NCBI GenBank assembly: GCA_033439765.1
Contig: JAULSN010000004.1
Span: 5,342,001-5,406,000 of the forward strand
Length of the DNA: 64,000 bases
From: Lasiosphaeria ovina
Lineage: Eukaryota > Ascomycota > Sordariomycetes > Sordariales > Lasiosphaeriaceae
Direction: 5' to 3'
The position numbers and the translations under genes are program-made. Below, piece after piece: positions 1-21,548 of this stretch; position 1 is the first letter of the stretch; each line of letters opens with the position of its first letter. The notes under the pieces are model-generated. The model had not been told where the DNA came from. It searched no databases and saw only the letters and a list, made by a program, of their open reading frames with translations.

Positions 1-1434
1 TTTCCTGGGCCTCTGCTTCACTCTCCCGGAGTCTTGACGGAAAGTCAGTACGACGACCTCAAGGAGTTCATGCGGGATCGCGAAGGGCCTCTTAAATCTG
101 CGGTAGACAACCTCGAGTCTATCATCCCAAAGGTTGTTCACATGCACAAGAAAAATGGGAAGCTCGTAATCGGGGACGAGTTTTGGCACGCGCTGAGGGA
201 TCTGGTCCAAAAAGACGACTCCGTTTTCACACTCGACGGAAAGGGCGACATCTCCGGCCGGCAGTGGAAAGCCATTGAAGGCCGGCTGAAGAGTTCTGGC
301 CTTCTTTCGGGCTCTGGCTCGACTAAACTGTCACCCGAGGATATCGAAAAAATTGTGGAAAGACACCCGTCACAGTCTTGGGACAATTGGCTGAAGGCCA
401 ACAAGCACAAAGTAGCCAGCCTCCTGGACCAGAATCTGGAAGAGCGCCTGGAGAAAGCCGAGAAGGCCGTCTCCAAAATGGTTTCTACTGACGACATTAA
501 GGATGTCGTGGTGACCAAGAAAGAGTTTCTCAAAGAGCTGGAAAAGAACATGGTCCAACACAAAAACGAGATCAATAGCCAGGTGGATGATCTCAGGTCG
601 TCAATAAAGAATCTGGCCAGCGAGACCCGCAAGTCTGCCTCTTCAGAGGGGCTCACAGAGGAAGAGCTCAAGCCCATCATCGAATCGGTCGTGAAAAAGG
701 CGATTGGCAATGCCCGGCTCAAGGCTGCTGCGCAAAGCAACATTGCCGATTTCGACGCCGAGCTGCAGCGCCGTGTCAACCATTTCAGCACAGGAAACGG
801 CGCGATGATAGATCTGTCGCTGACATCCCCGACTTGGCAGCTACCCAGGCCCCTCATCCCCACTCGGAAGTGGTTCAGGGCGATGCGCGCGCAGCCGCAG
901 TTCCAGCCCGAGAAGTTCGCAGCGCTGACGAGCTGGGAAGAGGCTGGGCAGTGTTGGTGCGCGGGCATCGTTGGCAAGAGCAACACGCGCATCCCTGCCG
1001 ACGTTGGCATCAAGCTGTCGCGCTACGTGATCCCGCAGAACATAGTGGTCGAGCACATCGACCCGGCGGCGACGGTCGACGCGGCCGCCACGCCCAAAAA
1101 CATGGAGGTGTGGGCGCTGTTCGACGAGCACGCGCGCGCCGAGCGCCTCAAGGACTGGATGGCCGTCAACTTCCCCGCGCGCACCGCCGACCCGCTGTGC
1201 CGTTTAGGGTTCGTGCTCATCGCCACCTTCACCTACGACCACCACCCGGCCGACCGCGGCGTCCAGATCCACCGCCTCTCCCCGGAACTCGCCGCCATCA
1301 AGGCCGCCACCGACCACATGCTCGTCCGCGCCGTCACGAACTACGGCGCCGACCATACGTGCTTCTACCGCCTACGCATGTACGGCGAGGAGCAGCCTGA
1401 CCTGGACCAGGAGAAGAGGAGCAAGGAATGGTGA
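1..1434 (+). CDS. SUN-domain protein, 3' part (5' end outside window)
   Basis: The reading frame is open from base 1 to the TGA at 1432-1434, and its first possible start codon in the window is a TTG, so the gene begins upstream. About 477 residues are visible. The first two thirds are charged and helical, rich in Lys/Glu, as in the lumenal coiled coil of Sad1/UNC-84 proteins. The last 200 residues match the SUN domain: an FSTGNG motif followed by ALIDLSLTS-like strand residues, a WCAG segment, and a C-terminal NYGADHTCFYRLRMYGE block that corresponds to the family's conserved end. SUN proteins sit in the inner nuclear membrane and bind KASH partners across the lumen. The transmembrane segment expected upstream is not in the window. 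It is convergent with DBP4, about 600 bp away. The domain call is firm; which fungal SUN paralog it is cannot be told from this fragment. Confidence 0.88.
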   Translation, partial: FPGPLLHSPGVLTESQYDDLKEFMRDREGPLKSAVDNLESIIPKVVHMHKKNGKLVIGDEFWHALRDLVQKDDSVFTLDGKGDISGRQWKAIEGRLKSSGLLSGSGSTKLSPEDIEKIVERHPSQSWDNWLKANKHKVASLLDQNLEERLEKAEKAVSKMVSTDDIKDVVVTKKEFLKELEKNMVQHKNEINSQVDDLRSSIKNLASETRKSASSEGLTEEELKPIIESVVKKAIGNARLKAAAQSNIADFDAELQRRVNHFSTGNGAMIDLSLTSPTWQLPRPLIPTRKWFRAMRAQPQFQPEKFAALTSWEEAGQCWCAGIVGKSNTRIPADVGIKLSRYVIPQNIVVEHIDPAATVDAAATPKNMEVWALFDEHARAERLKDWMAVNFPARTADPLCRLGFVLIATFTYDHHPADRGVQIHRLSPELAAIKAATDHMLVRAVTNYGADHTCFYRLRMYGEEQPDLDQEKRSKEW

Positions 1435-2028: not shown

Positions 2029-4552
2029 CTAGTCTTCCAGCAAGCCAGTAGCCAACGCCTCGAGATCCTGCAGATTGTCGGGCTCGTGGTCCATCTCAAT
2101 GACCTTCTTGCCGTTTTTCTTCTTGTTCTTGGCCGCGAGCTGGGCGCGCTCGTCGTCCGAGTCGTCCTGGAACCACTTCTTAGCCTTCTTCTTTGGCGGC
2201 TCGTCGTCGCCGCCGTCACTGTCATCCCTGTCCCTGTCATCGAGCATCGGCAGCGACCTCAGCAGCGCCAGGGGATCCTCGTCCATCTCGTCATCGTCGC
2301 TATCACTGACCAGCCGGGCCGACTGCTGCTCGAGCTGGGCAAGCTCCTCGCCACGCTCGCGGGCCTTTGCGCGGTCGCGCTTCTCCCGCCGCCGGTCCTT
2401 GGCGGCCTGCTTGTCCTCGACGTCGGCCTCGCGGACCTTGGTGGCCTCGGTCTCGACGAACTGCTCACGCAGGCGCGCGGCGGGGCCCTCCTGCTTGAAG
2501 TCGTCTTCGTCCTGCAGCTCGTACAGCGAGTGCGCATTGCCGTCGTCGTCAAACACCAGCTTGGTCGGCTTGTCCATGAACTTGAGCAGCTTCTTTTTGG
2601 ACTTGAGCAGCTTCTCGCGCCGGTTGGAATCGATCACCAGCTCCGACTTGCCCAGCTGGATAACCTTGGGCATGCCCTGGTCTTTGGTGCCATCCTCGGC
2701 CGCCTTGTCCAGGTCGTCGTCGCCCAGCACTCGCTTGACCGCGAGGAAATCTTGCTCGTCGTCCTCCCCGCCGTTGTTGTTCTCGTCGTCATCGCCCAAA
2801 AGCTTCCGGTAATGGCTTGACAGCACGTCCTGGTTTTGCCGCTCGGCCATCTTCTGGTACTTGGTGCGCACCTCGTCCTTTTTGGATTTCTTGCCCTCGC
2901 CGCCCTCGTAGTCGCTCTCGGACCCGCTCGACATAGCCTCGCGCGACGCGTTCTTTAGCCTCTTGACGTCCTCTCCCTTCTGGAACTTAATCTGTGGTGC
3001 TCCGGCCAGACCCATGCTCGCGGCGAAGGCGTCCAGATCCAGCTTCTTGAACTTGAAGACCTCCTTGTCTTTTTGTAGGTAGATTGAGCGTGTGTAGGAT
3101 ATGAAGGCCTTTTGGCCGAGGTATTTGAGATCGGGCGACTGGAAACAGAGACTCTGCAGCTGGTCTGTGATGCTCTTTTTCTTGGTCTCCTTGACGTTCA
3201 CCTTTTGGATAGGCACCTTTTTGTGTTCGAGCCGCTTCAGGAACGCTAGCTCCGTAGGCTCGAGAAACAAGACAGCCTTGCCTTTGCTTTCGTACCTGGC
3301 CGTTCTCCCAACGCGGTGGATGTAGGTATCGGCGTCCTCGGGGCAGTCCGCCTGAATGACCCAGTCCACGGCGGGGAAATCCACGCCTCTCGCCACGACG
3401 TCTGTCGCAAAGAGGCAGGCAAATTTTGCCGCGCCAAAGCGTGATGTGACTTCGAGCCGCGCCAATTGCTTTTGCCGCCCGTGAAGATGCAGCAGCGAGA
3501 TGCCTGGCTGCATGCGCTTAAAACTCTCGTACGCGAATCGGACCTGCTTGCCCGAAGATAAAAACACGATGATCTTGCTCTTAAGATTGGCCCGTAAGAA
3601 ACCCCACAGCGTCTCCAGCTTTTCCGCCAGCGGCACGACGATATAATGCTGCTGTAGGTTTGTGGGGGTCGCCGATGTAGCCTCCTCGTGCACCGACACG
3701 TACTCGGGATCCTTCAAGCTCAGGCGCGCAAGGTCGGACACCCTCTTGCTCTGGGTAGCGCTGAACAGTAGGGTCTGCCTGTCTTTGGGCAGATGGTCGA
3801 CAAGCGCATCGACCGCCGACTGGAACCCCAAGTCCATGATGCGGTCGGCCTCGTCCAGTACCAGGATCTGCAAGTTATCGACGTCGAAACCGGCCGTCTG
3901 GTCCAGGTGCTGCAGCATGCGCCCAGGAGTGCAGACCAGAATGTTCATCCTCCCCAAACGTTCGGCCTCTTCGCGTAGGCTCTTTCCTCCAATGACTAGG
4001 CCGGCGGAGAAGGTGTGTTTTCGGCCAATTTTCCTCAGGACCTCGAATATTTGGACGGCCAGCTCTCGGGTCGGGCTGATGATGAGGGCACCAAGGCCGT
4101 CGAGCTCGGTCCATTGTGCGCGGTAGAGGGCCTCAAGCACGGGGACGAGGAAGGCCAGCGTCTTGCCGCTACCGGTTTTGGCGGCGCCGAGGATGTCTTT
4201 GCCCTTTAGTGCCAGGGGGATGGCGACTTTTTGGACATCGGTGAGGGTCTCGAAGTGGGAGGCGCGGAGGCCGGTAGAGGTGGCAGAGCAGAGAGGGAGG
4301 TCGGTAAAGCTCTTGATGTCTGGCGACTTGATATCCTAGAGATTGAGGTGGTCAGAAATTGGGCTCGGAGACAACGAGTAGCAGGACAGAAGGCGCTGGC
4401 AAGAAAACCCCACTCCCACTCACAAGTTTGTCGACGGCCTTCCGCAACTTCTCGACATCGTCCTGGCCTCTTTTCCTCTTAAGCGACCGAGCTTCGGTGT
4501 TGGCCTTGGATGGCTTGCCACGCGCGGCGGCGCTTTTGGCACCAGGCGCCAT
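2029..4552 (-). CDS. DBP4: ATP-dependent RNA helicase DBP4 (HCA4/DDX10 type)
   Basis: Two exons: 4552-4424 and 4335-2029, joined in phase 0 across an 88-bp intron (donor GTGAGT, acceptor CTCTAG), giving 811 residues. The start ATG at 4552 gives an MAPG N-terminus followed by a basic [10 protein letters not shown] stretch, as in fungal Dbp4. All helicase motifs are visible: motif I TGSGKT at about 97-102, SPTRELA, TPGR, DEAD at about 204-207, SAT, and HRVGRTAR. The long C-terminal extension is acidic and lysine-rich and holds a conserved [16 protein letters not shown] block. Dbp4 acts in the nucleolus in early 18S rRNA processing and release of U14 snoRNA. The length matches the family (about 770-820), and no lesion is seen. 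Confidence 0.95.
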
Positions 4553-14157: not shown

Positions 14158-15419
14158 CTACCACCCAGAGTCCGAGTCGCTACCTGAGTAGTCGGACTCG
14201 GTGAACTCCGAGTCAGACTTGCTCATCATGGAGTCGTTATCAAAGTCGGAGTCGTCAAAGTCACACAGCCCCTCATTCGAGCCGTCACTGTCGCCAACGT
14301 CAGCCCACCGTGAGACTATGCTGGCTAGAAGCACGTACCTCGTTATCTCGGCCATGGCCTGCCAATCAGTAGGGAGGCTATTCTTGACACCGATGGACTG
14401 GGCTGCATCGCGCAGTCCCCTCCAGAACTGCTGAATGTTTGGCTCTCTGAAACGGTATCGCGGCCAGCTGTGGAAGTTCTACGAGGGATCAGCTTCACTC
14501 CAGTCAACAAAACAAGGCGCAGACTCACTTGGCTCATGCAGAAATGGGCAAACGCCAGCACAAACGCAATCCATCGCTTCGTCCGGACCGGGCCTCGCAG
14601 ATCCCTGCCCCCGCGGAACTCGACGGACCCCGACTTGCCGTCCAGCACATTGTCAAAGTTCCACAGCACGTAACGGTCCTTGCTCGACCCCGTGCGGTAC
14701 TGCATCAAGTCGCGGATCTGGCGCCGCGAAGTCGTCCGCCGGATCGTGTCCCAGAGCTCCACCGGCGTCACGTCGTCGTCGTCGGCGATCTCCTGCAGCG
14801 CGGCCGAGTGCTCCGAGTTCGGCTGGCAGTAGTGGTTCTCGCGGCGGTACCAGGGCAGCAGCCGCAAGACTTCCTCTTCGTAGTAGATGACGCCGAACGC
14901 AAGGCCCTGCAGCTGGGCGACGGTGAAGCGCTTGGACGGGGACGGGGACACGTGCACGTGGCTGCCGCAGAGGCGCGAAGAGTCGGGCATGCGGAAGACG
15001 CAGTTCCACGCGTTCCAGAAGGTGTCGATGTCGCGCTCCCAGCAGTATGCCGAGTCGAGGATGTGGGAGACGGCCTCCAGGGGGACTAGTGGGAAGGTCA
15101 GTGGACGGATACTAATGATGGGATCCGCTCGCTTTCAACCCATCATATTGCCAGCATGCAAAGGAAAGACAAGAAAGGACTGACTTAGAGGATGATCGGG
15201 GTTCCCAAGCGAGCCGTCCTTGGTAATCCACCACTTGTCATAATGCTCTGGATGCTTGGCGTAACTCCCGTCAAGCCTGTCGGCAGCAGCCCGGGCCCCT
15301 CGGGAGCGGAGCTCGGCGGCGAGCTTCTCATAGTACACGGCTCGTCCGGCCCGGTACTGGACCTGGTGAGGCGCCGCGATGAGCTCGATCTCAACACCGA
15401 AGTTGTATGAGTCGCACAT
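14158..15419 (-). CDS. Amidoligase_2 family enzyme, copy A
   Basis: Three exons: 15419-15185, 15085-14529 and 14478-14158, giving 370 residues; introns of 99 bp (donor GTCAGT, phase 1) and 50 bp (donor GTGAGT, phase 0). The protein carries the signatures of the glutamine-synthetase-fold amidoligases: FGVEIEL (8-13), TKDGSLGNPD (66-75), EAVSHIL (82-88), a CGSHVHVS box (118-125), and WNFDN followed by GSVEFRGGR near 220-235. In this fold the acidic residues of GVEIE and the His/Arg boxes bind Mg-ATP. The predicted reaction is ATP-dependent joining of a carboxylate to an amine. The C-terminal 45 residues are an acidic Ser/Asp tail (SDSDSGW end) absent from copy B. It is divergent from GGCT-like copy A with 1.1 kb between them. 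Substrate unknown. Confidence 0.85.
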
Positions 15420-16541
15420 TGCTTGTACGGGTGTGAGGAAATGAAAAGGACAAGCGAAGCAGAAGATGGACTTGTATTTCGTTCTCGAAAAAGGCGGGCC
15501 GTGACACGGCCTATCTCCATGGCCATGGCTAAGGGCTGTTATAATAATGTGGCATTCCGGTCAAGCTGGGCTCAGAGGACTTGAAGCCTCCCGCCATGCT
15601 GACAGTCTCCAACGTGGCTACCCCCAAGACCAACCGCCCCGGCAAGGCTCTGGGCTCGACTAGAACTAGATTGAAAAAAGGGGGTTTCAGTAATCTGAGG
15701 TGGAGGTACTTGTGAGACTTCATGTACACAAGGCTCTCGCACTGTGCTGGGAGCCTATCAGCCCGAAGCCCGAACACATGATGCAGAATCTCTGGGGCTG
15801 CCGCAAGTGATTGGAGAAGAAAACTAGCCTGCAGGATAAGCCCAACGCTAAAGTCAAACAGCATTTATGTGGTCGGGGCAGCACACCGTGACAGACGCCT
15901 ATTGCCTGATACATACTCTGGGCAGCAGCAGCTACCTTATAGGTATTGGGCGCAACCCTCACCGAACATTTAGGTTATGACAAGTCATTGCGTGGCGGCA
16001 TGAGCACGCAGTGGGGGCGGTCGTGGCTTTACCTGTGGGAACGATTGGTTCCTTCCGCGCATAGCTCGAGATGACGCTTGGCTGTCAGTTTGGTGTGCCC
16101 TACGAGACGAGGCCGCTCTGCAGTTTGCATCAGACGTTAAATGGCCGGAGGTGTCGGTCAAGGCCGGAATTCGCCGGCAGTCCGACCTGACGGCCGCCCA
16201 TGCGCATATGCAGGACACAGCCACTGTTACCTAGGTTGAACCGGTTTTGGGCCTTTGGTGCAACCACAAGCAATGCCTCACTAATGTGGGGCCGTTGGGT
16301 CATGACATTCGCACCTTTCCCAAACCAATTATTCCCCCTTCAACCCACCCGGGTAATTATTCCACACAACACACTACACACTACAATCGCCTCATCCCAA
16401 CCCAACTCAACTAATCAGCCAAGAGCATCACCTAGTCCGCCCGGAGGAGGGAGAAGAAGAAGAAGAAGAAGAAGAAGAAAAGAACAACCCTCAGGCAGCC
16501 TCATCGAAGAAAAAAAAAGAAGAAAAAAAAAAGAACCGAAA
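15420..16541. promoter_or_regulatory. Shared divergent intergenic region, cassette A
   Basis: This 1.1-kb region separates the starts of amidoligase A (-) and GGCT-like A (+) and must hold both promoters. An in-frame ATG at 16200 would extend the GGCT-like protein by 114 residues through a low-complexity basic stretch; I treat that part as 5' UTR. No specific factor site was identified. Confidence 0.45.
16449..16532 (+). repeat. Purine-only (GAA)n-type tract in the 5' leader
   Basis: An almost pure A/G stretch runs just ahead of the start codon at 16542. It includes about nine consecutive AGA/GAA units, then runs of adenine. Such tracts are prone to slippage and are common in fungal leaders. 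Confidence 0.75.
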
Positions 16542-17531
16542 ATGGGCACCCGCCTCTACTTCGCCTACGGCAGCAACCTCTCCCTGGCCCAAATGGCCGC
16601 GCGCTGCCCGCAATCCACGTTCCGCGGCCGGGCCGTGCTGCCCGACTTCCAGTGGCAGATCAACCAGCGCGGCGTGGCCAACATCGTGCCGCGGGCAGGC
16701 AGCAGCGTGCACGGGCTGGTGTACGAGCTCGGGGCCGGCGACGAGAAGCGGCTCGACCGCAACGAGGGCGTGCGCGCCGGCTTCTACAGCAAGGCACTAC
16801 TGCCCGTCGTGCTGCACGCGGCCGCCGACGCGCTGCAGATGCGCACGGCGCGCATCGTCGCCATGGGCGGCGCCGCGGCCGTCGTGCGCGACTTTGACAA
16901 ACTGGTGGGACTAGGAAGCCGCCCGCGGGCGAGGTTGGAGCCCGAAGTGCTCGTCTATGTCAGCGAGACCTACGTGCAGACGGGCGAGGCGCGGGATGAG
17001 TATGTGGATCGCATGAATAGGTCGATGGAGGACGGGGTTGCCATGGGGATCCCCGCGGCGTTTTTCCTGAATGCCGTGCGCGAGTATATCCCGAGCCGGC
17101 CAGCTCCAGCTCCAGCGCCCGCGCCGAGCCCGCGCCCTGCGTACCGGCCGCAGCCGAGGGAGAGGTCGCGGCCGCCGGTGGCGGTGGAGGCGATGGAGAG
17201 AGAGGTGAGGGAGAGAGAGGTGAGGGAGAGAGAGGCGAGGGAGAGAGAGGCGAGGGAGCGAGAGAGAGATTGGGATGGTGATTATGAAAGAGATCACCCC
17301 CGTGCTCCCGATGGGTACACGTACAGAAGACCTACGACACTGGGGAGGAGGACCGGTGGGGACGACGCATACGAGTACGAGTACGAGTATGAGCATCCAC
17401 GGCGCCCACTGTCGCGGACGGCGAGGGACTATGTCTATACTTCCTACTATGCCGGCACTCCGGTCGTTCGGACGGTGTCGCCAGATGCCAGCCAGTATCC
17501 CGCCAGGGGCCGCTGGAGCTCTGCGCTCTAA
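16542..17531 (+). CDS. Gamma-glutamylcyclotransferase-like (GGCT/AIG2 fold) protein, copy A
   Basis: Single exon, 329 residues. The ATG at 16542 was chosen because it places the glycine-rich loop at residues 6-13 (YFAYGSNL), as in the family and in copy B. The LDRNEGV box supplies Glu75 at the position of the catalytic general acid/base of gamma-glutamylcyclotransferases. QINQRGVANIV and a YVSETYV strand are shared with copy B. Enzymes of this fold release 5-oxoproline from gamma-glutamyl amines or peptides. The cyclotransferase part spans about 1-185. The rest is a low-complexity tail: Pro/Ala repeats, then about six REVRERE-type repeats, then a Glu/Tyr run (YEYEYEYE). It faces amidoligase A divergently and is convergent with amidoligase B. 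Confidence 0.85.
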   Translation: MGTRLYFAYGSNLSLAQMAARCPQSTFRGRAVLPDFQWQINQRGVANIVPRAGSSVHGLVYELGAGDEKRLDRNEGVRAGFYSKALLPVVLHAAADALQMRTARIVAMGGAAAVVRDFDKLVGLGSRPRARLEPEVLVYVSETYVQTGEARDEYVDRMNRSMEDGVAMGIPAAFFLNAVREYIPSRPAPAPAPAPSPRPAYRPQPRERSRPPVAVEAMEREVREREVREREAREREARERERDWDGDYERDHPRAPDGYTYRRPTTLGRRTGGDDAYEYEYEYEHPRRPLSRTARDYVYTSYYAGTPVVRTVSPDASQYPARGRWSSAL

Positions 17532-18041
17532 CTTCGGGTCGTCTTGTCAGACTTGTCTCACATGTATACGTTCTTACTTCTAGCATAGATTAAGCGTTTC
17601 GCTCTTCTCTCTCGCCGGCGGGCCTGGGTGTAATGTGACTGAGGACTGCAGGTGTTAGTTGTCTTCTTTTTCCCGTCTCCCGCCGCGGGTGCTCAGGCCT
17701 AGTCTTCGTCGCACTTCAGACATCAAATATTCAACGTGTCTTCAAATTCATTCAGCTCCATCGGTAGATATCTAAACATGGCTTCTTGTTCTCGTGTCTA
17801 TCTGACTTAAGTGGCTTCATCCTTCTGTTCCTAGTGCGCACTATGGTACAGGTACAAAAGGAAGATCAGGCACTCAGCAGGGAACATAGGGACATAATTA
17901 TCTCCATAACCCAAGGTTGGCCCTCCCAAAACTTTAAAACCAATCACCACTAAACATTTCAATAGCGAGCGTTCATAATTCATATGGTCATGTCTCTACC
18001 CAAACTTGGCTCTCTCAAAACAGATCACCCCAAAACATCTC
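17532..18041. other. 3' intergenic region between cassettes A and B
   Basis: It lies between the convergent ends of GGCT-like A and amidoligase B. Nothing else is seen. The junction of the presumed duplication should lie here. Confidence 0.5.
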
Positions 18042-19154
18042 TCAGACGGACCTGTTGAAAACATCAGCCACGCTGCCTGCTTATATCCTTCCAAGATGGT
18101 ACACTTACGGCAGCGTTTCGTTCAGGACACCAAACTTCTTGGGCAAGAACTCTCCCATGCCCAGCTGTTGTGCGGCCCTCTTGATTTCGGAATACAGGGC
18201 CGCAGTGCTCCCGGCGGAAAGACCGTTGGTGGCCAAGTCGTTCTTCAAGGGTGTTAGTCAGGTTGCGGGTCACCAATAACCAGCTTGAGTGGGGATGAGG
18301 GAATGAAACTCACCATCCGAAGCATGGCGTGGATGAAGGCCACGGCAAAGGTCATCCAGCGCTTCGTGCGCACCTCGCCGCGCAGGAACCGGCCGCCGCG
18401 GAACTCGATGGTGCCCGACTTGTTCGCGGCGACGTTGTCGAAGTTCCACAGCACATACCTGCTGTTCTGCATGATGTCCCTCAGCGCCTCGGGCGTGGCG
18501 GCGCTCCTGATCATGTTCGCGATGAGGACGCGGTTGCCGCCGGCGCGCTGCAGTCGGAACGAGTTCTTGCTGTTGGGCTTGCAGTACGCGTTGTCTTGGC
18601 GGTAGGCCATGAGCAGTTCCATGACCCGGTCCTCGTACACGACGATGCCGTACGCGATGGTCTTGAGCTCGGCGAGCGTGAACCGCGCGTTGCGGCCCCG
18701 CGACACGTGGACGTGGCTGCCGCAGGTTCCGGCCCGCTGCGGCATGTGGAAGACGGCCCGCATGGCGTCCCAGAAGACGTCGATCTCTTGGTCCCAGTCT
18801 GCGGCCGTGTCGAGAATGGGTGAAACGGCCTCTGTGGGAACTAGGCGGAGACGTTAGTACATGTGTCTGGAGGGGGGGAAAGGTAATCACTTGAACATGG
18901 TGGAACTCACTGAGGTTGTCCGGGTTTCCGAGAGAGCCATCCTTGGTGATGTACCACTCGTTGTAGTTGCTCGATCGCCACTCTCTCTGCGTCAAGTCGT
19001 TGTGCTGTGCCTTCAGGCCTCTGTTCCGGAGGGCCTTGGCCAACAACTCGTAGTACAGGGCATGCTTCTCATGGAGCGGCGGCCTGATCTTGTGTGGTTC
19101 CACCAGCACCTCGATCTCAACGCCGAGGGTGTATCGTGGGGTGGGGCCGGCCAT
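18042..19154 (-). CDS. Amidoligase_2 family enzyme, copy B
   Basis: Exons 19154-18911, 18840-18314 and 18242-18109 or -18105. The first intron (70 bp, GTGAGT, phase 1) and second (71 bp, GTGAGT donor, GACTAAC branch, phase 0) sit at the same codons as in copy A. The frame can end at TAA 18107-18105 (302 residues), or splice through a clean 57-bp intron (GTAAGT to CAACAG, 18108-18052) into a 10-nt exon ending TGA at 18042; both give almost the same protein. Signatures: TLGVEIEV (10-17), TKDGSLGNPD, EAVSPIL, CGSHVHVS, and WNFDN...GTIEFRGGR. The ATG at 19154 was preferred over one 20 codons upstream because it matches the copy A start. It lacks the acidic tail of copy A. Divergent from GGCT-like B. 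Confidence 0.84.
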
Positions 19155-20254
19155 GGCGAAGAAAGAAAGAATATAACAAGAAATACTATAAGACAATAAG
19201 GGGGAGAATGTCAATGACGTTGGTATCGGTAGAGTTAGATGGTCAATCGCCCTCCGCGAGACTTATGAAATGCTCAAGGCCGCCGAGACTTTGATGTAAA
19301 AAGGGGGGCGCTTCGACATATAGCTCAGCCCAACCTACCTCACGGTACGGAGCCTCGGGCAAAAAGATAGGGTCGCCCATCGCAGCGAGCAAGTCTTGAA
19401 CTCCCACAGACGTACCAAACAGCCTACCAGGTGTCGTCCCAGCGAGCTGGTGGGCAAAGCTTAACCATTTCTGGAATACGGCGTGCTGAAATGGGAAGGA
19501 ATTGAGGAGCTATTCTTTTTGCCCAAGCCCCCCGTAGCGGTACGGACGCCAACTCATCTCACAAACTCGTGGCACCATTTAATGCATCTCTAATCTTCAG
19601 CTCCCCAGCCCTGAATGGGGTTGGCGTGGGCTATGTCAATGCGAGGCCGCCAAATTCCATTTTGTGTGGTGGAACAGAGCCCGAATCATAAGCCTAAGGT
19701 GAAGGGTCCAACCATCGAGCCTGCCACACCTGCCTGATGTCCTCTTAAGGTTCCTTGTGACTCAAAACCCACTCTGGGGCGCGGCTTAGTGAGGAGCTAT
19801 TTCGGGTCCCCGGCACATCGGTTTCTCGGGTCGTGGGATACAGCCAAAAGAATGAGTGACCGCTATCCAATGAAAGGCGAGGCGGTCGGCTGTCCTCGCT
19901 GCTGCCTGGCGCCCCTGGTGGTGGGGGTTTCCTGGAGCCCGTCACAGTCGATTGTTGGATAATTACGCACTGTGAGGCTCTGGTCGCACCTCCCTCGACT
20001 GCCAGCTCAGGCGCCTTTGCATTAGCGGCCTGACGCCGGGCCAATCGCCTCCATTGGGCCGCGCTTCGGGTGTCGGTCTCCAAAGGGGGATCGGATTCTC
20101 CTCACTCCCGTGGTGTCGATTTCCCCAAGTCACCATTTCATCGTCGCGACGATATTACGATACTGCAACATTTTGATTTTGATCCTTCGCTGACAGCCTT
20201 CCTTGTTCCTGAACAACCCTACGACCCAAAAAGACCCACAACAACCACGGCAGA
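19155..20254. promoter_or_regulatory. Shared divergent intergenic region, cassette B
   Basis: This 1.1-kb region lies between the starts of amidoligase B (-) and GGCT-like B (+), the same arrangement and almost the same length as in cassette A. No long similarity to the cassette A spacer is obvious by eye. No gene is seen in it. Confidence 0.45.
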
Positions 20255-21548
20255 ATGGCATCTCGCGGCTCTGCCGGCGGCAGCCTCTACTTCGCCTATG
20301 GCAGCAACCTTTGGATCAGCCAGATGGCCAAGCGCTGCCCCGAGAGCTCCTTCAAGGGGAAGGGCACGCTGGAGGGCTACCGGTGGCAGATCAACCAGCG
20401 GGGCGTGGCCAACGTCGTCAAGGCGCCCGGCCAGTCCGTCGAGGGCCTCGTCTTCTCCGTCACGGCGTCGGACGTGAGGACACTGGACCGCAACGAGGGG
20501 ATCTCGCGGAAGTTCTACGAGCGCCAGTTCCTGCCTGTCATTCTCGAGGAGCACCCGCTCCTCGCGAACCAAAAGACGGCTCAGGTGGCGCGGTGGCTGG
20601 AACAGAACCGCGACGACAAGGACGTCAAGATAATGTCGGGCGCATTCGAAGAGCGCTACCCTGCCGTCGTCTACGTCAGCGAGAAGTTCAAGGACGACGG
20701 GCCGATCCGGACCGAATACATCAAGCGAATGCAAAGCGCCGCTGCCGACGCCATCGCCCTCGGCGTCTCCACCTCGTGGGTCAACGGTGCCATGGGCCGA
20801 TACATTAGCCCGGCGAAGGCCGAGCCACCGGCCGCGCCAGCCCAGACCCCAAGCCAGCCGACGGCGAGGTTGGACAGACTGGGCGAGGGCGGGACCCGCA
20901 GAAGCGCTGCCGCCGCCGGGGCGCCGTCGGGAGAAGATACGGCATCGAGCGGTAAGAAGCCCAGCAACAATCCGTCCTCCTTCCGGTGGCTGGGGTTTTT
21001 TGACATGTTTCTGCGCAGGCGCTGGAAGACCACCTCGTCAAGCTTCCGCCGCCGGCCTGCCCACGTACCAGTCCGACCCCATCAGCCTGCGAGACTTGCG
21101 AGAGGCGAATCGCAAGAACGGCGCCGACTCCGGCGTCGCGTTTCCGCCGACCATGCTCGAAGGCGTGAAGAGGTCGAGCGGGCTCGCGGCCCAAGACGAA
21201 GGGGATGAGCGGGTCTACCTCGTGTTCGTGTCCAAGAGGCTGCCCCGGAGTGGTGCGGATCCCGAATCCAACGGCGCCGTCAGGGTGCACTGGTCGACAA
21301 TGGATCTGGAGCTTGCGAACGAGCTGGCCATGTACCGTTTCCGGAGCCTGTGGTCGAGGATCTGCGCCGACTCGTTGGAAGGGGGATTCCCGCAGTGGGG
21401 GAGGGTGACCAGGGGCGGGCAGCGCGCTCCGGGGTTGAGCTGGGACCTGAGTGATGATGCGTGTCTGAGCCTCCATGGCTCGGTGGGGGAAACAACCAGC
21501 GCGACGGTTTGGGTTGAGCCGCAAACGTTGATTAGATCATGTACGTGA
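20255..21548 (+). CDS. Gamma-glutamylcyclotransferase-like protein, copy B, with extra C-terminal domain
   Basis: Two exons: 20255-20951 and 21019-21548, phase-1 intron of 67 bp (GTAAGA to GCGCAG), giving 408 residues. Without the intron the frame ends early in Arg-rich nonsense at 21208, while the second frame is open and protein-like to 21548, so splicing is well supported. YFAYGSNL lies at 12-19 and LDRNEGI puts the catalytic-type Glu at 81. Residues about 1-185 match copy A throughout (QINQRGVANVV, YVSEKF, TEYIKRM). From about 260 there is a second conserved-looking region (RVYLVFVSK, WSTMDLELANELAMYRFRSLW, DDACLSLHG, ATVWVEP) absent from copy A. Its pattern resembles a fungal C-terminal module of unknown role. 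Predicted to cleave gamma-glutamyl amides. Confidence 0.83.

What the first reader, a model, noticed from the sequence alone, without database searches (positions are those of the whole stretch)
14158..21548. Tandemly duplicated amidoligase / gamma-glutamylcyclotransferase cassette: a candidate make-and-break amide-bond system
Seen: four genes alternate amidoligase(-), GGCT-like(+), amidoligase(-), GGCT-like(+). Each pair is divergent across an almost equal 1.1-kb spacer. The two amidoligases share both intron positions and phases and all motif boxes (GVEIE, DGSLGNPD, CGSHVHVS, EFRGG). The two GGCT-like proteins share YFAYGSNL and the LDRNEG box with the catalytic-type Glu. Known: Amidoligase_2 (PF12224) proteins have the glutamine-synthetase fold of ATP-dependent carboxylate-amine ligases; GGCT-fold enzymes cleave gamma-glutamyl amides to 5-oxoproline. 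Inference: one partner attaches gamma-glutamyl (or a similar acid) to an amine, peptide or protein, and the other removes it, forming a reversible tag or a detoxification or storage cycle. Retention of both partners after duplication argues that they work as a pair.
Basis: partly seen in the sequence, partly recalled or inferred. Interest (0 to 1): 0.9.

Follow-up and report, generated by a model that had tools for sequence, protein, structure and literature searches.

The report
Fungal amidoligase–cyclotransferase four-gene cluster
A filamentous fungus carries two neighbouring copies of a gene pair, one gene looking like an enzyme that makes a glutamate-type amide bond and its partner like one that breaks it; the pairing recurs in other fungi, in bacteria and in phages, so the two very probably work together, but what they act on is unknown.

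Summary
Confirmed. In Lasiosphaeria ovina four intact genes lie as amidoligase-1 (-), GGCT-1 (+), amidoligase-2 (-), GGCT-2 (+), with divergent spacers of 1122 and 1100 nt. The amidoligases share three introns (phases 1, 0, 2), one more than reported.

Adjacency is not chance. 44 of 98 contigs with a fungal amidoligase relative also carry a GGCT relative (matched by exact contig length); two of each share a contig in 7 other fungi. Of the 30 best PF12224 loci fetched from 398 Bacillota genomes, 24 have a GGCT next door, and the bacterial GGCTs most like the fungal one are mostly those in such pairs.

The pair itself is therefore already known from Firmicutes and phages. What appears new is the duplicated, divergent, intron-bearing version conserved in fungal genomes. 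Some amidoligase-1 orthologues also end in a CaaX box. A make-and-break cycle (ligase adds gamma-glutamyl, GGCT releases it as 5-oxoproline) fits fold, motifs and pairing, but substrate and direction are untested.

The parts
14158..15419 (-). AmL1: Amidoligase_2 (PF12224), 353 aa, exons 15185-15419, 14529-15085, 14339-14478, 14158-14287 (introns phase 1, 0, 2); acidic Ser/Asp tail
   Evidence: Exact reproduction of P0049; PF12224; motifs GVEIE, CGSHVHVS, EFRGG read in the sequence
15420..16541 (.). 1122-nt spacer between the divergent start codons of AmL1 and GGCT1
   Evidence: Direct reading
16542..17531 (+). GGCT1: GGCT/AIG2-type cyclotransferase, 329 codons, YFAYGSNL and LDRNEG; low-complexity C-terminal tail
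   Evidence: PF06094 E=2.3e-7; P0241 is 100% identical over residues 1-180
18042..19154 (-). AmL2: Amidoligase_2 (PF12224), 304 aa, exons 18911-19154, 18314-18840, 18109-18242, 18042-18051 (introns phase 1, 0, 2)
19155..20254 (.). 1100-nt spacer between the divergent start codons of AmL2 and GGCT2
   Evidence: Direct reading
20255..21548 (+). GGCT2: GGCT/AIG2-type cyclotransferase (residues about 7-187) plus a second, unassigned alpha/beta C-terminal domain (about 256-402); 408 aa, exons 20255-20951 and 21019-21548

Best explanation
It is a conserved two-enzyme amide cassette, present here as two ancient neighbouring copies. The amidoligase is a small glutamine-synthetase-fold ATP-dependent ligase that activates a carboxylate, most likely the gamma-carboxyl of glutamate, as an acyl phosphate and joins it to an amine (small molecule, peptide or lysine side chain). 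The GGCT partner recognises the gamma-glutamyl amide and expels the amine again by ring closure to 5-oxoproline. Together they give a reversible gamma-glutamyl mark or protecting group on an amine. Shown: gene structure, intact active-site motifs, folds (modelled for AmL2 and GGCT2), duplication, and the recurring pairing in fungi, Bacillota and phages. Inferred: glutamate as the acid, the direction of each reaction, and that both act on one and the same bond. Unknown: the amine, and the biological role.
Against: No substrate, no biochemical data, no expression data. The folds allow other chemistry: the GS superfamily also holds the depupylase Dop (listed), and GGCT-fold proteins include non-enzymes (recalled). 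The pairing does not say whether the enzymes oppose each other or act in sequence. Amidoligases also occur alone: 0 of 9 other amidoligase loci in this genome have a GGCT nearby, 6 of the 30 Bacillota loci have none, and a Porphyromonas phage amidoligase has no GGCT annotated in 8.7 kb. GGCTs too: 6 of the 35 best bacterial matches, including the top two, have no amidoligase in flanks of up to 1.5 kb.
Confidence: 0.5

Rival explanations
1. Sequential rather than opposing: the ligase attaches an amino acid or amine to a gamma-glutamyl-bearing intermediate (or protects it), and the GGCT performs a later trimming or cyclisation step in the synthesis of a small molecule, as in the BtrJ/BtrG protect-deprotect steps.
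For: LUZ24-like phages have amidoligase, a second COOH-NH2 ligase, a glutamine amidotransferase, an ATP-grasp enzyme and a GGCT in one cluster, more like a synthesis pathway than an on-off switch.
Against: The window's pairs stand without such extra ligases, and none is annotated beside the three gut-phage pairs opened. No biosynthetic core gene was recognised in 12 flanking frames scanned, but 8 of these 12 had no family at all and other frames were not scanned, so this is weak.
Confidence: 0.2
2. Glutathione-type metabolism: the YbdK-like ligase makes gamma-glutamyl-cysteine or a gamma-glutamyl amino acid, and the GGCT degrades it, forming a gamma-glutamyl amino-acid cycle.
For: Nearest solved folds of the ligase are YbdK and plant glutamate-cysteine ligase; [quoted passage not shown] a planctomycete phage has amidoligase, glutathione synthase and GGCT together and its authors propose amino-acid metabolism (PMC10945688, passages).
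Against: Fungi make glutathione with other enzymes (recalled); ligase-YbdK identity is only 13%, so substrate cannot be transferred.
Confidence: 0.12
3. Protein tagging/untagging: the ligase puts glutamate or a peptide on protein lysines and the GGCT or the ligase itself removes it (Pup/Dop-like logic).
For: PafA and Dop appear among the weaker Foldseek matches of the ligase model (E 0.026 and 0.084); a CaaX box in 8 of the 34 amidoligase-1 clade rows suggests action at a membrane.
Against: No tag gene was recognised in the four-gene stretch, though none was searched for specifically; a GGCT releases 5-oxoproline, which fits one glutamate, not a peptide tag (recalled chemistry).
Confidence: 0.1
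4. Chance neighbours or a domesticated phage/bacterial remnant without joint function.
For: The same two families travel together in phages and phage-like bacterial loci.
Against: All four genes open, three of them with canonical GT-AG introns; catalytic motifs kept in most fungal relatives; two amidoligases and two GGCTs on one contig in 7 other fungi, of Sordariales and Xylariales (orders recalled from the names); an intron-free AmL2 protein exists in a source labelled lgn (P0001), which I take to be a read assembly and hence a hint of transcription (inference).
Confidence: 0.04

Closest known systems
Amidoligase_2 (PF12224) - AIG2/GGCT neighbourhood of Firmicutes and their phages (recalled from Iyer et al. 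2009 and the Pfam text; examples in passages of PMC3485107, PMC11318856, PMC5513430)
   Same: Same two Pfam families side by side; the fungal proteins hit the two PHROG families listed together there; fungal GGCT2's best bacterial matches are mostly GGCTs of such pairs
   Different: In the 24 paired bacterial loci both genes lie on one strand, ligase first; here they are divergent, the pair is doubled, three of the four genes carry introns, and the locus is a fungal chromosome
LUZ24-like phage cluster (COOH-NH2 ligase, amidoligase, glutamine amidotransferase, ATP-grasp, GGCT)
   Same: Amidoligase and GGCT in one cluster
   Different: Three further enzymes there; the amidoligase is only remotely alike (PF12224 E=8.4e-5)
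BtrJ/BtrG of butirosin synthesis (recalled)
   Same: A ligase adds gamma-glutamyl, a GGCT-fold enzyme removes it as 5-oxoproline
   Different: BtrJ is an ATP-grasp enzyme, not a glutamine-synthetase fold
YbdK and the GS-like enzymes GmaS and 1-naphthylamine GS
   Different: 12-13% identity and longer proteins; whether their genes neighbour a GGCT was not looked at

Membership tests
Amidoligase_2 (PF12224) | Score over Pfam's gathering cut-off | tested here: met
   AmL1 41.5 bits (hand-joined model), AmL2 56.2 bits against 22; PF12224 precomputed for P0049 and P0001
Amidoligase_2 (PF12224) | Glutamine-synthetase-type ligase fold | tested here: met
Amidoligase_2 (PF12224) | Active-site boxes (GxExE, GxHxH, ExR) | tested here: met
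   Present in both window proteins; 91, 88 and 95 of 98 relatives. Their equation with GS catalytic residues is recalled
Amidoligase_2 (PF12224) | ATP-dependent amide formation | not testable with these tools
   No assay
GGCT/AIG2 (PF06094) | Score over gathering cut-off | tested here: met
   GGCT1 31.8, GGCT2 37.1 bits against 22.8
GGCT/AIG2 (PF06094) | GGCT fold and catalytic Glu | tested here: met
GGCT/AIG2 (PF06094) | Release of 5-oxoproline | not testable with these tools
   No assay
Bacterial/phage amidoligase-GGCT pair | The two genes adjacent | tested here: met
Bacterial/phage amidoligase-GGCT pair | Same strand, ligase upstream of GGCT (as in the 24 paired loci) | tested here: not met
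   Divergent in the window; orientation in other fungi could not be seen
Pup-type protein tagging | A small tag protein encoded with the ligase | not tested
   No targeted search was made

The most novel reading that the evidence does not exclude
A eukaryotic reversible gamma-glutamylation system: a conserved four-gene, two-isoform writer/eraser cluster of filamentous ascomycetes, taken over from or shared with bacteria and phages, in which one writer branch is tethered to membranes by prenylation and each writer has its own eraser.
Probability: 0.25. Interest if true: 0.85.

Novelty: new variant of a known kind. Interest (0 to 1): 0.55.

Why it matters
Amidoligase_2 proteins have been predicted ligases without a known substrate since 2009 (recalled). 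A pair found together in fungi, Bacillota and phages, with two isoforms in fungi that can be cultured, makes the question directly testable: delete the GGCTs and look for the conjugate that piles up. If the cycle exists it would be a new kind of reversible amine modification in eukaryotes.

Tried and rejected

Limits: co-occurrence by contig rests on exact equality of contig lengths printed; the contigs themselves could not be opened, so orientation in other fungi is untested. Only the best 120 rows of each search were listed (156, 157 and 188 found). P0205 was dropped for want of a contig length. The amidoligase tree used 98 of 120 rows (at least 240 aa), the GGCT tree 91 of 224, chosen because they share a contig with an amidoligase or another GGCT, plus a few extra. 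Bacterial GGCTs were found with a profile of my own from phage and fungal GGCTs.

Literature: no paper that describes the pair in fungi was seen in the listings; most listed papers were not opened. Iyer et al. 2009 is not held and may mention fungi.
Full report
What is there. The window is contig C27:5342001-5406000 of a 51.7-Mb assembly. C27 is 5,987,086 bases long, the contig length given for Lasiosphaeria ovina proteins P0049, P0121 and P0241; P0121 and P0241 are 100% identical to the window genes over the searched parts, and P0049 and P0121 are reproduced exactly from window exons. So the organism is L. ovina, a sordarialean ascomycete (order recalled). Exact splice models give AmL1 15419-14158 (-), AmL2 19154-18042 (-) and GGCT2 20255-21548 (+); GGCT1 is a single frame 16542-17531 (+). 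Start-to-start spacers are 1122 and 1100 nt.

Duplication. AmL1 and AmL2 share three introns with phases 1, 0, 2. In a quick tree of 98 fungal amidoligases, AmL1 falls in a clade of 34 rows (SH-aLRT 98) and AmL2 in one of 41 rows (94, below the tool's star). In a quick tree of 91 chosen GGCTs, GGCT2 falls in a clade of 45 (99) and GGCT1 in one of 38 (98) (several long branches meet, so deep joins are unsure). In 7 other fungi one contig carries two amidoligases and two GGCTs, in 6 of them with each of the four clades represented in the trees; in the seventh, Diplogelasinospora, P0003 was too short for the tree and is taken as AmL2 by its 88% identity. So the doubled unit predates the split of Sordariales and Xylariales; Fusarium contigs with AmL2, GGCT1 and GGCT2 and a Colletotrichum contig with AmL1, AmL2 and GGCT2 make the same probable for Hypocreales and Glomerellales (orders recalled from the species names). 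In Oculimacula and Boeremia an AmL1-type ligase shares a contig with a GGCT2-type partner, so the simplest history, one AmL-GGCT unit copied whole, is not proven.

Adjacency in fungi. Contig lengths printed for 120 amidoligase rows (98 distinct lengths) and 224 GGCT rows (201 distinct) share 44 lengths: 6 of 27 amidoligase contigs under 10 kb, 8 of 12 at 10-40 kb, 15 of 29 at 40-400 kb and 15 of 30 above. With about five GGCT genes in a 40-50 Mb genome, a contig of under 40 kb would hold one by chance well under 1% of the time (inference; L. ovina has 5 PF06094 places). Locus tags are consecutive in FGADI_3414 (GGCT2), 3415 (AmL2), 3416 (GGCT1); E0Z10_g8702 (GGCT1), g8703 (AmL2), g8704 (GGCT2); IL306_004485 (GGCT1), 004486 (AmL1); VTL71DRAFT_1168 (GGCT2), 1169 (AmL1); and CTRI78_v006382 (AmL1), 006384 (AmL2), 006385 (GGCT2) fits with one gene between. 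This matches the window's order. In the window's own genome 0 of 9 other amidoligase loci have a GGCT nearby.

Adjacency in bacteria and phages. Three gut-phage records opened out of the 50 that match fungal GGCT2 each have a PF12224 gene one or two genes upstream of the GGCT, two of these annotated only as hypothetical. Against this, a Porphyromonas phage amidoligase has no GGCT annotated in the 8.7 kb opened. A scan of bacterial genomes with one gut-phage ligase gave 11 loci, one of them the query itself; 11 of 11 have a GGCT directly downstream, but they are close relatives of one query. A less biased draw of 398 genomes of the phylum of a Lachnospiraceae genome (Bacillota) has PF12224 in 34, with 53 places; of the 30 loci fetched, 24 have a GGCT in the 1.5-kb flanks and 6 have none. 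Fungal GGCT2 as query matched 68 places in 52 of the same 398 genomes; 34 of 68 lie within 2 kb of a PF12224 match, 29 of the best 35 and 5 of the other 33; 25 genomes have both (hypergeometric p 4e-18, not corrected for kinship). Six of the best 35, including the top two, stand without an amidoligase. So fungal GGCT2 resembles most the bacterial GGCTs that pair with amidoligases, and the pairing is old. In a tree with bacterial and phage ligases the 28 fungal rows form one group (99/97), so AmL1 and AmL2 split within fungi; two phage rows have very long branches, and the direction of any transfer was not tested.

Literature. Passages read by term search only: PMC3485107 (amidoligase Orf22 and AIG2/GGCT Orf23 adjacent in a C. 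difficile island), PMC11318856 (prophage regions 13-alpha and 13-epsilon with amidoligase PHROG 2443 and GGCT PHROG 2520), PMC5513430 (Arthrobacter phage genes 97 and 98), PMC3890496 (LUZ24-like phage), PMC10945688 (planctomycete phage with amidoligase, glutathione synthase, GGCT and glutamine amidotransferase; the authors speculate on nitrogen use), PMC3158057 (amidoligase domain enriched in Sclerotinia/Botrytis), PMC8982410 (an Epichloe amidoligase absent in 4 of 12 asexual strains), PMC12756093 (substrate classes of GGCT-fold enzymes), PMC8430323 (BtrG named as partner of BtrH). No text on the pair in fungi was seen in the listings, most of whose papers were not opened.

Mechanism. The most economical reading is a gamma-glutamyl writer and eraser. 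The ligase fold and boxes call for ATP and a carboxylate; a GGCT partner makes glutamate the likeliest acid, because GGCTs act on gamma-glutamyl compounds (need for a free alpha-amino group recalled). What the amine is cannot be told. Eleven of 120 amidoligase rows have Cys at the fourth position from the end, against 0 to 5 at the twelve other positions counted; eight of them, all in the AmL1 clade of 34, end in CaaX-like boxes by my reading (CVIL four times, CTIL, CVTM, CVVM, CCIM), in rows named Hypoxylon, Nemania, Rostrohypoxylon, Fusarium, Penicillium, Boeremia and Xylaria and one unnamed. The other three (P0009, P0034, P0089) I set aside as likely mis-predicted or cut ends; the script's own stricter pattern also gave eight, but a partly different eight. 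L. ovina has none. This hints at a membrane site for one branch. The flanking frames scanned showed no recognised biosynthetic gene, but 8 of 12 had no family at all.

Verdict. Real, conserved and functionally coherent; as a pairing already known in prokaryotes, as a doubled fungal cluster not seen described in the library searched. New variant of a known kind; interest 0.55.

Noticed in passing
P0053, P0055, P0056, P0059, P0064, P0070, P0084, P0095 (relatives of window 14158-15419): C-terminal CaaX-like boxes (CVIL x4, CTIL, CVTM, CVVM, CCIM), most after an acidic Ser/Asp tail, in 8 of 34 amidoligase-1 clade proteins; absent in L. ovina. Suggests prenylation of one amidoligase branch.
   Followed up: partly
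about 21087-21530: GGCT2 has a second alpha/beta domain (residues about 256-402, pLDDT 59-94 by blocks of ten), recognisable in Fusarium and Xylaria relatives, with no Pfam or convincing fold match and no other copy in this genome.
   Followed up: partly
   Followed up: partly
L032-L037, L039, L042: A further frame downstream of the bacterial amidoligase-GGCT pair matches the amidoligase profile, but the three examples printed lack GxExE; perhaps a degenerate, regulatory or structural partner.
   Followed up: partly
P0262 (Amanita phalloides): A 465-aa protein with what look like three successive GGCT-like repeats (YFAYGTDM, FGYGSNM, YFAYGKHM).
   Followed up: no
16542-17531: The database GGCT1 of L. 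ovina (P0241, 324 aa) is 5 residues shorter than the window frame (329 codons) within an Arg/Glu repeat; no splice model explains it.
   Followed up: partly
2029-4335 (-) and 1-1434 (+): Flanking genes: a DEAD-box helicase with an SPB4-type C-terminal extension and a Sad1/UNC domain protein.
   Followed up: no
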